Shown one piece after another: positions 2,522 to 5,550 of a stretch of DNA of 6,401 bases. The stretch covers positions 1 through 6,401 of the forward strand of contig MGML01000132.1 of the NCBI GenBank assembly GCA_001796415.1, given 5' to 3'. The position numbers and the translations under genes were made by a program. The notes beneath the pieces were generated by a model. The model was not told the DNA's origin. It saw only the letters and a list, made by a program, of their open reading frames with translations, and made no database searches. Source of the stretch: Chloroflexi bacterium RBG_13_46_14. GTDB taxonomy: Bacteria; Chloroflexota; Dehalococcoidia; Dehalococcoidales; UBA2162. Within the stretch, counting starts at the first letter, position 1. Each line of letters begins with the position of its first letter.

Positions 2522-2920
2522 CTATCTTACAGCTTCACCGGCAAGCTTGTCGGCTTCTTTGTTCAGATTCCTGGGAATATGAGTGATAGTAAAGCTTTTA
2601 AATCGGCTCTTTAGTTCGATTACCTTCTGGTAGAGTAGTTTCAGGTCGGCGTTTTTCACCCTGTACCTGCCGTTTATCTGCCTGACGATAAGTTCGGAGT
2701 CGGCGCGTATTTCCACCTCGTCGAACCCAAGTGAAACGGCTTTTTCCAGGGCGGCAATCACTGCCATATATTCAGCCTGATTATTGGTAACTCTGCCTAC
2801 GGCCCGTGAGATAGTGGTGACGGTTTCACCCTGCTGGTTTTGAATTACGACGCCTATCGCCCCGGGTCCGGGATTGGGCTCCGCCATGCCGTCGGTATAT
2901 ATCAACGCTTTTTTACTCAA
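2522..2920 (-). CDS. RNase H family protein (RNase HI-type fold, short form)
   Basis: A 132-residue protein with a full RNase H core. Likely activity is hydrolysis of RNA in RNA-DNA hybrids with divalent metal. The four acidic catalytic residues are D10 (Y-T-D-G), E50 (N-Q-A-E-Y), D74 (R-A-D-S-E) and D124 (N-K-E-A-D), with H114 near the flexible catalytic-loop position. It is shorter than E. coli RNase HI (155 residues) and lacks the basic handle, resembling the YpdQ/archaeal-type group rather than canonical RnhA. The start is TTG at 2918-2920. The frame is closed by a TGA not far upstream, and no ATG or GTG intervenes. The zinc-ribbon gene stops four bases earlier (TAG, 2925-2927), so translation is probably coupled. 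That pairing is known from several phyla, for example Actinobacteria. Whether this member is catalytically active is inferred from motif retention only. Confidence 0.92.
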   Translation of the reverse strand: MSKKALIYTDGMAEPNPGPGAIGVVIQNQQGETVTTISRAVGRVTNNQAEYMAVIAALEKAVSLGFDEVEIRADSELIVRQINGRYRVKNADLKLLYQKVIELKSRFKSFTITHIPRNLNKEADKLAGEAVR

Positions 2921-2924
2921 TTTG

Positions 2925-3620
2925 CTAAGCCAGGTAAAGGATACGTCCGCAGCTGCTGCATCTCACCATGCTGCCGCTTCTTACCTGATGAAGTTCGTTG
3001 AGGGGCAGAGATATTCGGCAGCCGCGGCAGATGCCCTGTTCAACTCTTGCTACAGATGCGCCTTTCTGTTTTTTAAGTTCTTCATAAACTTTCAGTACCC
3101 GGGGATCTATCTCGGACGCCAGTGCCTTTCGTTTTTCCTTAAGACCGGAAATGACATTTTCAAGTTCCTTTAATTCGATAGTAAAGACTTTTTGTTGTTC
3201 ATTCCACTCCGTTTCCAGCTTTTCCAGGTTGCTGCGGAGTTCCGATATAGTAGAGTTCGTTCTCTCAATGGTTTCCATGATTTCCAGATCCCGGTCTTCG
3301 AGTTTTCCCCGGTTATTTTTAAGGTTTTCAATCTCCTGCTGAAGGCTGGTTAGTTCCTTGGGGCTGGTTGTTTTTCCGCTATATAGTTTTTCTTCGAATT
3401 TTGAGAGTTTTACGGAGATATCTTCTATCTCCCATTCGACCGTGTGCTGGGTGTGGGCTATCTCTTCGAGCTGTTTGGTTTCGGTTTCCAGTTTCGTCCG
3501 GGTTTCGGTTATATCTTTACATTCGCCCAGTTGCGCGGATATACGGGCATAATCCTGCTCATTCGACGCGAGTTCCTGATCGACTTCCTGCAGATTGAAA
3601 AGCTGTCTGGATATATTCAT
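2925..3620 (-). CDS. C4-type zinc-ribbon coiled-coil protein
   Basis: A 231-residue protein of the zf-RING_7 (Pfam PF02591) type. Residues 1 to about 175 are charged and heptad-like (long coiled coil, starting N-I-S-R-Q-L-F-N-L-Q-E-V-D). The C-terminal 35 residues form a four-cysteine zinc ribbon: C198-x2-C201 and C221-x2-C224. The family is widespread and conserved but poorly characterised; a nucleic-acid or scaffold role is commonly proposed. I chose the ATG at 3618-3620. A GTG at 3663-3665 would add 15 residues (V-L-L-I-I-F-D and so on), but those do not look like the family's start and overlap a plausible promoter. It lies immediately upstream of the RNase H gene, with four bases between stop and start. 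Divergently oriented on its other side is the terminase cassette. Several plus-strand frames inside are shadows. Confidence 0.9.
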   Translation of the reverse strand: MNISRQLFNLQEVDQELASNEQDYARISAQLGECKDITETRTKLETETKQLEEIAHTQHTVEWEIEDISVKLSKFEEKLYSGKTTSPKELTSLQQEIENLKNNRGKLEDRDLEIMETIERTNSTISELRSNLEKLETEWNEQQKVFTIELKELENVISGLKEKRKALASEIDPRVLKVYEELKKQKGASVARVEQGICRGCRISLPLNELHQVRSGSMVRCSSCGRILYLA

Positions 3621-3633
3621 TGTGATTGAGCTT

Positions 3634-3662
3634 ATTTTATAACGGTCGAAGATTATTAGCAA
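3634..3662 (-). promoter_or_regulatory. Possible promoter of the zinc-ribbon/RNase H operon
   Basis: On the minus strand TTGCTA (3657-3662), a 17-base spacer and TAAAAT (3634-3639, five of six to consensus) lie just before the ATG at 3618-3620. The leader would be only about seven bases, which fits the absence of a Shine-Dalgarno. This promoter lies inside the extension that a GTG start at 3665 would require, so it favours the shorter protein. Confidence 0.4.
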
Positions 3663-3708
3663 CACAGGAGAAAAACGGGAACCGGCGACACGAGTTTATG
3701 GTCTTAAT

Positions 3709-3724
3709 TAGAACAAAAGTTCTA
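3709..3724. promoter_or_regulatory. LexA/SOS-type box between the zinc-ribbon gene and the terminase pair
   Basis: A perfect 16-base dyad contains GAAC-AAAA-GTTC (3711-3722), flanked by TA on both sides. GAAC-N4-GTTC is the core of the LexA (DinR) operator of Gram-positive bacteria, and I recall a Dehalococcoides LexA being reported to use the same type of site. It ends 57 bases before the small-terminase ATG. It abuts TATTAT (3723-3728), a possible plus-strand -10 without a clear -35, and the same DNA reads TATAAT on the minus strand (3724-3729). Position and spacing suit repression of the terminase pair, with release on DNA damage. Control of the divergent housekeeping operon is the alternative. 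LexA binding itself is inferred. Confidence 0.55.
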
Positions 3725-3781: not shown

Positions 3782-4153
3782 ATGAAAACGGGAGAAACGA
3801 AAGAAACGAAAAAGAAAAGAGGTGCTCCAAAGGGAAATCAGAACGCGAGGAAACACGGGTTTTATTCCAAGGTCCTGGATGAAAAAGAACAGGCTGCCTA
3901 TGATGAGGCTATCTTTGTAGAAGGTATCGATGAGGAAATCGCGTTGCTGAGAGTGAAGATGATCTCGTTGCTCGAACGCGACCCGGAAAACATAAGACTT
4001 ATTTCCCAGGCTGCCAATACACTTATAAAGCTGATACTTATCAAACACGACGTAGACAGGAATGATCCTAAATCCATGAAAAAAGCAATATATACCGTTC
4101 TCAGGGACGCAGCGTTGCCGCTGGGCATCAAAATAGGTTCCAGATTTCTTTAA
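3782..4153 (+). CDS. Terminase small subunit-like protein
   Basis: A 123-residue basic protein directly upstream of a large terminase gene. After a lysine-rich start comes R13-G-A-P-K-G-N-Q-N-A-R-K-H-G-F-Y-S29, a motif common at the N-terminus of phage small terminase-like proteins. The middle (about residues 45-95) is helical and may mediate oligomerisation. In phages the small subunit recognises viral DNA and recruits and regulates the large subunit. Start ATG 3782-3784 has a weak AAAGGA (3764-3769) 12 bases away. An ATG at 3769 is out of frame and does not encode the motif. A nine-base tandem duplication (3794-3802, 3803-3811) encodes E-T-K twice. Identification rests on the motif and the neighbour more than on a strong domain match. 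A LexA-type box lies upstream. Confidence 0.72.
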   Translation: MKTGETKETKKKRGAPKGNQNARKHGFYSKVLDEKEQAAYDEAIFVEGIDEEIALLRVKMISLLERDPENIRLISQAANTLIKLILIKHDVDRNDPKSMKKAIYTVLRDAALPLGIKIGSRFL

Positions 4154-4158
4154 TAAGT

Positions 4159-5550
4159 ATGAAAAAGTCGGATCAACCACATGTACAACTGTTACGGCCG
4201 TACCAGAGAGAAGCAGCCGCTGCCATCGTTGACAGCGTGCTTTCCAGAAAGGGCCTAACCTTTTGCGTGGAAATCGCCCGGCAGGGAGGTAAGAACGAGC
4301 TTTCAGCCCAGATCGAGCTTCTTCTCCTGACGCTGTTTATGGCGGGATCACGTACCCTGGTGAAGTGTTCGCCTACTTTTAAACCGCAGACGGTCATTTC
4401 CATGGACAGGTTGAAAGACAGGTTGAACGATGCCGGATTCGAGGGTTTCTGGACTTCGGAAAAAGGCTACATCATCAGGCTGGTGTACGCACGGGCTCTG
4501 TTTCTGTCCGCCGATAAGTCAGCCAATGTGGTAGGACACACGGCGGATTTACTTCTGGAAGTTGATGAAGCTCAGGATGTAAGTATCGAGAAATATACCA
4601 AAGAGTTCAAACCAATGGGCGCGACCACCAATACGACGACCGTCCTGTACGGTACCACCTGGGATGACACGACGCTGCTTGAGCAAACCAAACAGACCGC
4701 CTATGAACTGGAAAAAAAGGATGGGATAAAGCGGTGTTTTCGTTACGACTGGCAGGAAGTAGCGAAATATAACCCGGACTATTTGACCTATGTCGAAGGT
4801 GAAAAAGCACGCCTTGGTGAAGATCACCCGTTATTCCTGACACAGTATCGACTGATGCCGGTTCGGGCTGGAGGAGGTTTCCTGTCTGCCCAGCAGAGGG
4901 CGCAGCTCCAGGGCGAACATATGAGGAGACATAGACCTGAAAAAGGGAAGATATATGTTGCCGGAATAGACCTTGCCGGTGAATCGGAAGAAGGTGATGA
5001 AGAGAGACTGTCAGCGAAAAAACCACGCCAGGATTCCACGGTGATAACTATCGGTGAACTGGATTTTTCGCGTTGCAATGATTTTCAAAAACAACCTGTT
5101 ATCAGGTTAGTGGAACACTATTACTGGACAGGTAAAAACCACAGCGCTCTGTACGGTCAGCTAATTGACATAATCAAGAATGTATGGAAATGCCGCAGGG
5201 TGGTTGTTGACTCAACAGGAGTTGGGCAGCCGGTATATTCATTTCTGCGACAGGCACTTGGTTCAAAAATAGTACCTTTTACCTTTACTGCCAGGTCAAA
5301 GTCGGAACTCGGTTACGGCCTCCTGGCGGCTATTAACTCCGGCAGTATAAAAATGTACGCTGGTGATGGTTCGGAAGAATACAGCCGCTTCTGGACAGAA
5401 ATGGAGAAAGCAAGGAGCCGTTACCGTTCCAATCAGACGATGAACTTCTATGTAGAGCCTTCGCAGGGTCACGATGATTTCTTGATGAGTCTGGCACTGC
5501 TTGTACAGGCCGCCGAGGGGTATACGCCGAGAGAAGCGAGGGGAAAGTAA
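4159..5550 (+). CDS. Phage terminase large subunit (ATPase and nuclease), stand-alone
   Basis: A 463-residue large terminase, the motor that packages and cuts phage DNA. ATPase half: Y15-Q16 (adenine-binding motif), Walker A-like A40-R-Q-G-G-K45-N46 (Asn where Thr/Ser is usual, a variant seen in other terminases), Walker B L131-L-L-E-V-D136-E137, and coupling motif Y164-G-T-T-W168. Nuclease half (RNase H-like): D271 in G-I-D-L-A-G, D292 in Q-D-S-T, D351 in V-V-V-D-S-T-G-V-G, and H438-D-D440. Length and motif order are normal for the family and no frameshift is seen. The gene starts five bases after the small-subunit stop, without its own Shine-Dalgarno, so translation is probably coupled. No portal, head or tail gene follows: homoserine dehydrogenase begins 66 bases on. 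Remnant prophage, gene-transfer-agent part, or domesticated or defence function are all possible. Confidence 0.93.
   Translation: MKKSDQPHVQLLRPYQREAAAAIVDSVLSRKGLTFCVEIARQGGKNELSAQIELLLLTLFMAGSRTLVKCSPTFKPQTVISMDRLKDRLNDAGFEGFWTSEKGYIIRLVYARALFLSADKSANVVGHTADLLLEVDEAQDVSIEKYTKEFKPMGATTNTTTVLYGTTWDDTTLLEQTKQTAYELEKKDGIKRCFRYDWQEVAKYNPDYLTYVEGEKARLGEDHPLFLTQYRLMPVRAGGGFLSAQQRAQLQGEHMRRHRPEKGKIYVAGIDLAGESEEGDEERLSAKKPRQDSTVITIGELDFSRCNDFQKQPVIRLVEHYYWTGKNHSALYGQLIDIIKNVWKCRRVVVDSTGVGQPVYSFLRQALGSKIVPFTFTARSKSELGYGLLAAINSGSIKMYAGDGSEEYSRFWTEMEKARSRYRSNQTMNFYVEPSQGHDDFLMSLALLVQAAEGYTPREARGK

What the first reader, a model, noticed from the sequence alone, without database searches (positions are those of the whole stretch)
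3782..5550. Stand-alone phage terminase pair in a housekeeping neighbourhood
A small terminase-like gene and an intact-looking large terminase (ATPase and nuclease motifs present) sit alone. To the left is the zinc-ribbon/RNase H operon, and to the right, after 66 bases, homoserine dehydrogenase with its own promoter. No portal, capsid, tail, lysis or integrase gene is in the window. A decaying prophage would usually lose ORF integrity, so two clean, tightly spaced genes suggest they are kept for a purpose. Candidates are a gene-transfer-agent packaging module with its other genes elsewhere, a phage-satellite-like element, or a domesticated DNA motor/nuclease for repair or defence. Selection itself is inferred.
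Basis: partly seen in the sequence, partly recalled or inferred. Interest (0 to 1): 0.75.

Follow-up and report, generated by a model that had tools for sequence, protein, structure and literature searches.

The report
Split GTA-like DNA-packaging gene pair
Two virus-derived DNA-packaging genes sit alone among housekeeping genes of a Dehalococcoidia bacterium; in relatives they belong with virus-shell genes, next door or elsewhere in the genome, and seem to be inherited like ordinary genes, so they may help build virus-like particles that carry the cell's own DNA.

Summary
In detail: a terS-like gene (3782-4153) and an intact terL (4159-5550) stand alone between zinc-ribbon/RNase H genes and hom. 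The window's genome is not held, so the rest comes from relatives. In its class 222 of 393 genomes match the TerL profile, 170 the capsid profile, 149 both. 19 of 30 genome loci have the same zinc-ribbon neighbour. Complete loci add HTH, portal, scaffold, capsid, adaptor and propeller-hub genes. Seven of 30 genomes share the terL-hom layout; six of these have portal and capsid on other contigs or scaffold positions. The TerL tree largely follows the host tree. Window-L023 dN/dS is 0.067 for terL, 0.059 for hom. Best reading: packaging half of a split, vertically inherited module that works like a gene transfer agent; particles and cargo untested. Main rival: a capsid-independent role, since some lineages lost the capsid gene but keep constrained terS-terL. 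A clade of mobile relatives carries HNH and, where contigs allow, integrase.

The parts
3782..4153 (+). terS-like gene, short terminase small-subunit-like protein, 123 aa
   Evidence: PHROG 1889 (E 2e-10, profile 83-143 of 276), NF040601 (profile 83-141 of 233, below cut-off); a homologue was called in 44 of 52 fetched loci, mostly directly before terL
4159..5550 (+). terL, terminase large subunit, 463 aa
   Evidence: Pfam PF17289 Terminase_6C above cut-off; PHROG TerL matches; 22-row alignment
4279..4296 (+). TerL Walker A-like motif RQGGKN (residues 41-46)
   Evidence: R41, Q42, G44, K45, N46 invariant in 22 sequences; motif name recalled
4552..4569 (+). TerL Walker B-like motif LLEVDE (residues 132-137)
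   Evidence: E134, D136, E137 invariant in 22 sequences; motif name recalled
4969..4971 (+). TerL acidic residue D271, read as nuclease residue
   Evidence: invariant in 22 sequences; role recalled
5209..5211 (+). TerL acidic residue D351, read as nuclease residue
   Evidence: invariant in 22 sequences; role recalled
5473..5478 (+). TerL acidic residues D439-D440 (GHDD), read as nuclease residues
   Evidence: invariant in 22 sequences; role recalled
2925..3665 (-). zinc-ribbon coiled-coil protein (CT398-like): left address marker of the locus in relatives
   Evidence: PF24481; left of terS in 19 of 30 genome loci
2522..2920 (-). RNase H: left address marker
   Evidence: PF13456/PF00075
5617..6401 (+). 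homoserine dehydrogenase (cut by window end): right neighbour, same in 7 of 30 genomes
   Evidence: PF00742, PF03447; cluster c15
3711..3722 (.). GAACAAAAGTTC palindrome before terS, possible SOS-type operator (reading recalled); not conserved, weak lead
   Evidence: exact match; such a box lies before 3 of the 36 terS motifs found, about 0.3 expected from the rate over all loci

Best explanation
The pair is the DNA-packaging half of a phage-derived head module that Dehalococcoidia inherit with the chromosome and that most likely works like a gene transfer agent. The full module in relatives is terS-terL, an HTH protein, portal, scaffold-like protein, HK97-type capsid protein, adaptor, and a protein with a lectin/sialidase-type propeller and a hub-like C-terminal part. 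In relatives with the window's layout the module is split: terS-terL stay by the zinc-ribbon gene and hom, the rest lies on another contig; the same is inferred for the window. Proposed mechanism: the proteins act in trans; TerS-TerL dock on the portal of an empty head and fill it with whatever DNA is at hand, mainly host chromosome, because the element lacks the HNH nuclease and the integrase that its mobile relatives carry beside terS. Shown: gene identity, shared neighbourhood, split layout in relatives, one TerL match in 192 of 222 positive genomes, purifying selection, a TerL tree largely congruent with the host tree, HNH homologue missing from 37 of 40 genomes. Inferred: particle formation, host-DNA cargo, delivery, the role of HNH loss, and that the window's own genome holds the head genes.
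For: TerL and capsid profiles co-occur: 149 both, 73 TerL only, 21 capsid only, 150 neither of 393 (not corrected for kinship). Zinc-ribbon neighbour in 19 of 30 genome loci. terL-hom layout in 7 of 30 genomes; portal and capsid gene on other contigs in G001, G002, G003, G005, G006 and at another scaffold position in G007; from contig lengths at least about 18 kb (G002) and 42 kb (G003) away. Head genes complete in L098 (G001) and L099 (G002), and up to the contig ends in L103 and L110. On a 1,686,510-base contig (G152) terL and capsid gene are both present about 0.6-1.1 Mb apart. dN/dS window-L023: terL 0.067, hom 0.059; 12 listed capsid-gene pairs 0.05-0.11. Host marker versus terL r 0.38 p 0.0025 (n 28), portal r 0.68 (n 15), capsid r 0.72 (n 14); shared clades. 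HNH homologue in 3 of 40 genomes, 0 of the 10 whose main contig matches the listed genome size. Portal, capsid, adaptor, hub.
Against: The window's own genome is not held. No particle, cargo or expression data. No tail-tube, tape-measure or lysis gene among the proteins scanned; the only tail-like signs are a PHROG match of one L035 gene and the hub-like part of the 660-aa protein. The TerL-host correlation is moderate and 10 of 25 inner TerL branches are open. Head genes are damaged or lost in several genomes that keep terL, so a particle cannot be made there. G004 of the terL-hom group shows neither portal nor capsid gene. L046 has an ORF of the integrase cluster left of the zinc-ribbon gene (not followed up), and no genome-wide integrase search was made. 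In G001 both the terL and the head contig start at contig ends, so its distance is unknown. Many genomes are drafts. The small subunit is weakly recognised.
Confidence: 0.6

Rival explanations
1. The terminase pair has been kept for a capsid-independent job, such as a DNA motor-nuclease in repair, recombination or defence; head genes are optional.
For: In G043 and G126 (sizes like Dehalococcoides, recalled) scaffold, capsid gene and adaptor are gone, and G079 shows none of the five head genes at its locus; between the three, terS dN/dS is 0.04-0.07 and terL 0.11-0.14. Head genes are also broken in G003, G010, G011, G017, G021 while terL stays open. Class-wide 50 genomes have a strong TerL hit (E <= 1e-100) without capsid hit against 21 capsid-only, p 0.0008 (the 21 were not filtered by E-value, kinship not corrected).
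Against: In the window's own clade head genes are present and constrained. G079's terL match ends at residue 393 of 464, before the last acidic residues. These genomes were found through terL, which favours keeping it. No PADLOC match for terS or terL. Drafts can miss the head contig.
Confidence: 0.2
2. Slowly decaying remnant of an old prophage without present function.
For: Several relatives have lost parts of the module.
Against: dN/dS 0.067, like hom; TerL tree largely congruent with hosts; TerL profile match in 222 of 393 genomes, one match in 192 of them.
Confidence: 0.12
3. Part of a mini-phage or satellite that still packages itself (cfPICI-like), merely integrated.
For: Related elements carry HNH and integrase beside terS-terL, and two such contigs look circular at 12.5 and 14.9 kb.
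Against: Those fall in a separate TerL clade; zinc-ribbon-linked loci have no HNH cluster member and, except an ORF in L046, no member of the integrase cluster; the module is split over loci in relatives.
Confidence: 0.06

Closest known systems
Gene transfer agents (RcGTA and other -gtaviriformidae)
   Same: Phage-derived packaging and head genes in the chromosome, mostly vertical inheritance, genes over several loci (as described in passages of PMC9953437 and PMC10883770)
   Different: Module is smaller than the 17-gene RcGTA head-tail cluster (passage); no comparison of sequences with RcGTA was made; RcGTA-like TerL groups with headful phages (passages of PMC7947584) whereas this family has HNH-bearing kin; particle and host-DNA cargo untested
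Capsid-forming PICI satellites (cfPICI)
   Same: The mobile relatives combine integrase, HNH, terS-terL, portal, capsid and adaptor in 12-15 kb; cfPICIs make their own capsids (passages of PMC11389934; gene layout recalled)
   Different: The zinc-ribbon-linked form has no HNH beside terS and is not linked to an integrase (one ORF in L046 unresolved); helper phage unknown; propeller-hub protein present
Phages with SPP1/P22/SU10-like portal, SU10-like adaptor and phrog_212 capsid protein
   Same: Profile matches of portal, capsid protein and adaptor (the adaptor match is just under Pfam's cut-off)
   Different: Best phage-collection TerL is 33% identical (Bacillus phage vB_BboS-125), best listed capsid proteins about 39-40%

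Membership tests
Gene transfer agent (viriform) | Virus-derived packaging and head genes in the host chromosome | tested here: met
   terL here; portal, capsid protein, adaptor in relatives
Gene transfer agent (viriform) | Vertical inheritance | tested here: met
   TerL tree largely congruent with the host tree and shared neighbourhood, in relatives
Gene transfer agent (viriform) | Genes spread over several loci | tested here: met
   In relatives with the window's layout and in G152, G174; other relatives have one locus
Gene transfer agent (viriform) | No integration or self-replication genes (criterion recalled) | tested here: inconclusive
   No HNH and, L046 apart, no integrase-cluster ORF at zinc-ribbon-linked loci; no genome-wide integrase or replication search
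Gene transfer agent (viriform) | Purifying selection on the genes (criterion recalled) | tested here: met
   dN/dS 0.067 terL for window-L023; 0.05-0.11 for 12 capsid-gene pairs
Gene transfer agent (viriform) | Particles that package mostly host DNA | not testable with these tools
   needs purified particles
Gene transfer agent (viriform) | Tail and release functions | tested here: inconclusive
   propeller-hub protein and one tail-like PHROG match; no lysis gene among proteins scanned; rest of genomes not searched
cfPICI-like satellite | Own integrase next to capsid and packaging genes (recalled) | tested here: not met
   not in the window nor between the zinc-ribbon gene and terL in relatives; found in the separate clade
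Terminase large subunit (Terminase_6C) | Profile match above cut-off and conserved ATPase and nuclease residues | tested here: met
Terminase small subunit | Profile match above the curated NCBI cut-off | tested here: not met
   NF040601 32.3 bits of 120; partial PHROG matches; hence called terS-like, the role inferred from its place before terL

The most novel reading that the evidence does not exclude
A so far unreported gene transfer agent family of the class Dehalococcoidia, present also in cultured Dehalogenimonas, related to 12-15 kb integrase-bearing mini-elements, that became host property by losing the integrase and the HNH/cos packaging step, so that a self-packaging element turned into a host-DNA packager; in some lineages its terminase half has outlived the capsid and taken a second role.
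Probability: 0.4. Interest if true: 0.85.

Novelty: new member of a known kind. Interest (0 to 1): 0.7.

Why it matters
Gene transfer agents are experimentally known from few groups (recalled). A module of independent origin across an anaerobic class, including cultured Dehalogenimonas, would offer a natural route of gene exchange in slow-growing bacteria with small genomes. Chromosomal and mobile forms of one family would allow a direct test of how a phage-like element becomes a gene transfer agent: compare what each packages, with and without HNH.

Tried and rejected
G007 (CP070645) first seemed to have terL broken in two halves 957 kb apart. The halves share 141 identical bases next to N runs: a scaffolding artefact, so its distances are not used.

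A GAAC-N4-GTTC box before terS (3711-3722) suggested SOS control. It recurs before only 3 of 36 terS motifs found (that motif search did not find every terS), so it is a weak lead only.

The ORF clusters were made by transitive BLAST links and lumped portal, scaffold and 660-aa protein; some rows I first labelled portal by length were the 660-aa protein. Gene presence was therefore rechecked by tblastn with reference proteins in 18 loci and 8 loci. The longest-ORF rule also hid terS in the window map, terL in L016 and the capsid gene in some loci such as L120; window terS was added by hand. The integrase and HNH labels come from profile scans of L013 alone; other loci carry them by cluster membership.

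In one search some listed TerL matches span one stop while their open frame is full length (for example G325); I take these as terminal stops and did not check them one by one.

Recent-prophage and single-strain readings were rejected. Defence: no PADLOC match for terS or terL; the zinc-ribbon protein's PADLOC hits look like coiled-coil matches.

Papers: eight searches with the group's names list no title or abstract on a gene transfer agent of Dehalococcoidia, Dehalococcoides or Dehalogenimonas; most papers listed were not opened. Passages only were read of PMC9953437, PMC10883770, PMC7947584, PMC11389934, PMC8522061, PMC10924106, PMC13055281. Two more searches were on satellites and gene transfer agents in general. 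I recall, unseen here, a 2012 paper (Waller et al.) on prophage activation in a Dehalococcoides consortium; whether it touches this locus is unknown.

Full report
What is there. The window carries a terS-like gene (3782-4153) and terL (4159-5550) on the plus strand, 5 bases apart, hom starting 66 bases after terL, and on the minus strand to the left a zinc-ribbon/RNase H pair, tRNA-Phe, tRNA-Gly, a PAC2 protein and an SDR. TerL matches Pfam Terminase_6C above its cut-off and keeps the residues that are invariant over 22 aligned sequences, read here as Walker A, Walker B and nuclease residues D271, D351, D439-D440 (roles recalled). The small protein matches only positions 83-143 of a 276-position TerS profile and stays far below the NCBI cut-off. 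A homologue was called in 44 of 52 fetched loci, mostly directly before terL, which makes TerS the likely role. It lacks the N-terminal part of longer phage TerS proteins, where a DNA-binding domain often lies (recalled); relatives from the mobile clade are equally short, so this is not special to the chromosomal form.

Host. No whole genome is held for the window. The nearest of the 30 genome loci is L023 (Dehalococcoidia bacterium W403, 89% identical TerL); all 30 records are titled Dehalococcoidia, Dehalococcoidales or Chloroflexi.

Neighbourhood. Of 30 genome loci, 19 have the zinc-ribbon gene left of terS (in L032 with an 877-aa ORF between); four begin too close to terL to tell (L023, L025, L030, L047); seven have other neighbours (L034, L038, L039, L042, L044, L045, L050).

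Split layout. Seven of 30 genomes (G001-G007) have hom after terL, directly or with one or two ORFs between (L026, L028), G007 by the piece L102; in eight further loci the contig ends at or just after terL. Portal and capsid gene were found in six of the seven, the miss being G004, a 0.8 Mb draft. They lie on other contigs than terL in G001, G002, G003, G005, G006. Contig lengths put them at least about 18 kb away in G002 and 42 kb in G003; in G001 both lie at contig ends, so its distance is open. Structural genes are complete in L098 (G001) and L099 (G002) and complete up to the contig edges in L103 (G006) and L110 (G005); in G003 the capsid gene is interrupted. G007 is a scaffold with a joining artefact and is not used for distance. 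In other genomes (for example G008, G009, G013, G019) terminase and head genes are neighbours. In genomes whose main contig matches the listed size, terL and capsid gene lie about 8 kb apart in G111 and G216, about 45 kb or more in G097, and 0.6 Mb or more in G152 and G174. G111's contig length (1,851,576) equals that of a Dehalogenimonas alkenigignens contig; the sizes of G152, G126 and G237 equal those I recall for D. lykanthroporepellens, Dehalococcoides mccartyi 195 and D. formicexedens.

Spread and inheritance. 222 of 393 genomes of the class match the TerL profile at E <= 0.001 (some weakly) and 170 the capsid profile; 149 both, 73 TerL only, 21 capsid only, 150 neither (Fisher p about 1e-29, kinship not corrected; counted from lists I copied out). 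Thirty of the 222 show more than one TerL match. A host marker (S12-S7-EF-G, 28 genomes) correlates with terL (r 0.38, p 0.0025), portal (r 0.68, n 15) and capsid protein (r 0.72, n 14). Both trees hold the groups G001/2/5/6/7 and G011/13/17/21/23; G008/14/20 group in the TerL tree and, with G028 among them, in the host tree. The TerL tree has 10 open branches of 25, and G026 is a misfit with a very long host branch, perhaps a mis-binned marker. The window groups with L023, L024, L028 and L029, all of the terL-hom layout, SH-aLRT 99.

Selection. Nei-Gojobori dN/dS for window-L023 is 0.067 for terL (dS 0.83) and 0.059 for hom; L023 starts after terS, so terS had no such pair. Twelve listed close terL pairs of other loci, many from the mobile clade, run 0.04-0.12; capsid-gene pairs 0.05-0.11; terS pairs 0.01-0.37, the highest at dS 0.09.

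Mobile relatives. Thirteen loci carry an HNH-cluster gene before terS, nine of them also an integrase-cluster gene; the labels come from profile scans of L013. L016 has no open terL frame and was not in the tree; the other twelve fall into one TerL clade of 15 rows, SH-aLRT 97, without the zinc-ribbon neighbour. L022 has 144-base direct terminal repeats and the first 40 bases of L012 recur 194 bases before its end, so both look circular at about 14.9 and 12.5 kb. A homologue of the HNH protein occurs in 3 of 40 genomes: G025, which holds the mobile form; G002, four divergent copies, none on its terL or head contig; G017, marginal; and in none of the 10 genomes whose main contig matches the listed size. 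HNH partners are needed for cos cutting in HK97-type phages (recalled). Loss of this partner and of the integrase is the simplest route to host-DNA packaging, but the direction of change depends on the root, which was not settled. L046 has one integrase-cluster ORF left of its zinc-ribbon gene; it was not followed up.

Results against a simple gene-transfer-agent reading. In G043 and G126 the region from mid portal to the hub protein is deleted, and G079 shows none of the five head genes at its locus; none of the three has a capsid hit. terS dN/dS between them is 0.04-0.07, terL 0.11-0.14, but G079's terL match ends at residue 393 of 464. G017 has a portal-hub fusion frame, G021 only the hub end, G011 a portal stub with intact capsid gene, adaptor and hub, and G003 and G010 a serine-recombinase element inside the capsid gene. 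With strong TerL hits only, 50 genomes are TerL-only against 21 capsid-only (p 0.0008; the 21 not filtered likewise, kinship not corrected). Either the terminase decays more slowly or it has a second job; sampling through terL favours finding it.

Known relatives. Phage records are distant: 33% for TerL, about 39-40% for the capsid protein. Gene transfer agents are described as vertically inherited, spread over several loci and packaging host DNA (passages of PMC9953437 and PMC10883770). The first two are met in relatives; the last cannot be tested here. RcGTA-like TerL is placed with headful phages (passages of PMC7947584), whereas this family has HNH-bearing kin, so the origin is probably independent (inference). 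Eight searches with the group's names listed no report for this class.

Verdict. The pair is most likely the packaging half of a split, host-inherited, gene-transfer-agent-like module of Dehalococcoidia (0.6), with a capsid-independent terminase role as the main rival (0.2).

Noticed in passing
L100 (G003) 6627-15466 and L033 (G010) 17667-19317: The capsid gene is interrupted at about codon 47-52 by an element with a large serine recombinase in two genomes (recombinases about 45% identical), so the capsid gene seems to be an attachment site.
   Followed up: partly
window 3711-3722: Perfect GAAC-N4-GTTC palindrome between the zinc-ribbon gene and terS, possible SOS-type operator; not conserved in most relatives.
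   Followed up: partly
L051 and L102 (G007, CP070645): terL appears in two halves 957 kb apart that share 141 identical bases next to N runs: a scaffolding artefact in a record titled as a chromosome.
   Followed up: yes
L012 and L022: Two IMG/VR contigs look circular at about 12.5 and 14.9 kb and hold integrase, HNH, terminase, portal, capsid, adaptor and hub genes: a very small self-contained element.
   Followed up: partly
L037 10038-11696: Single open frame fusing the portal N-terminus (1-131) to the hub protein C-terminus (236-667); portal-hub junctions at other positions in L126 and L127.
   Followed up: partly
L024 12562-14451 and relatives: An Ig/TIG-domain protein, mostly on the opposite strand, lies next to the terminase or the head genes in many loci; its link to the module is unknown.
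   Followed up: no
L021 3295-9725: Viral contig with two terS-like genes and the head module divergent from terL, a possible intermediate layout.
   Followed up: no
L046, integrase-cluster ORF of 304 aa left of the zinc-ribbon gene: Tyrosine-recombinase-like ORF near a zinc-ribbon-linked terminase locus; may be a host recombinase or a sign of mobility.
   Followed up: no
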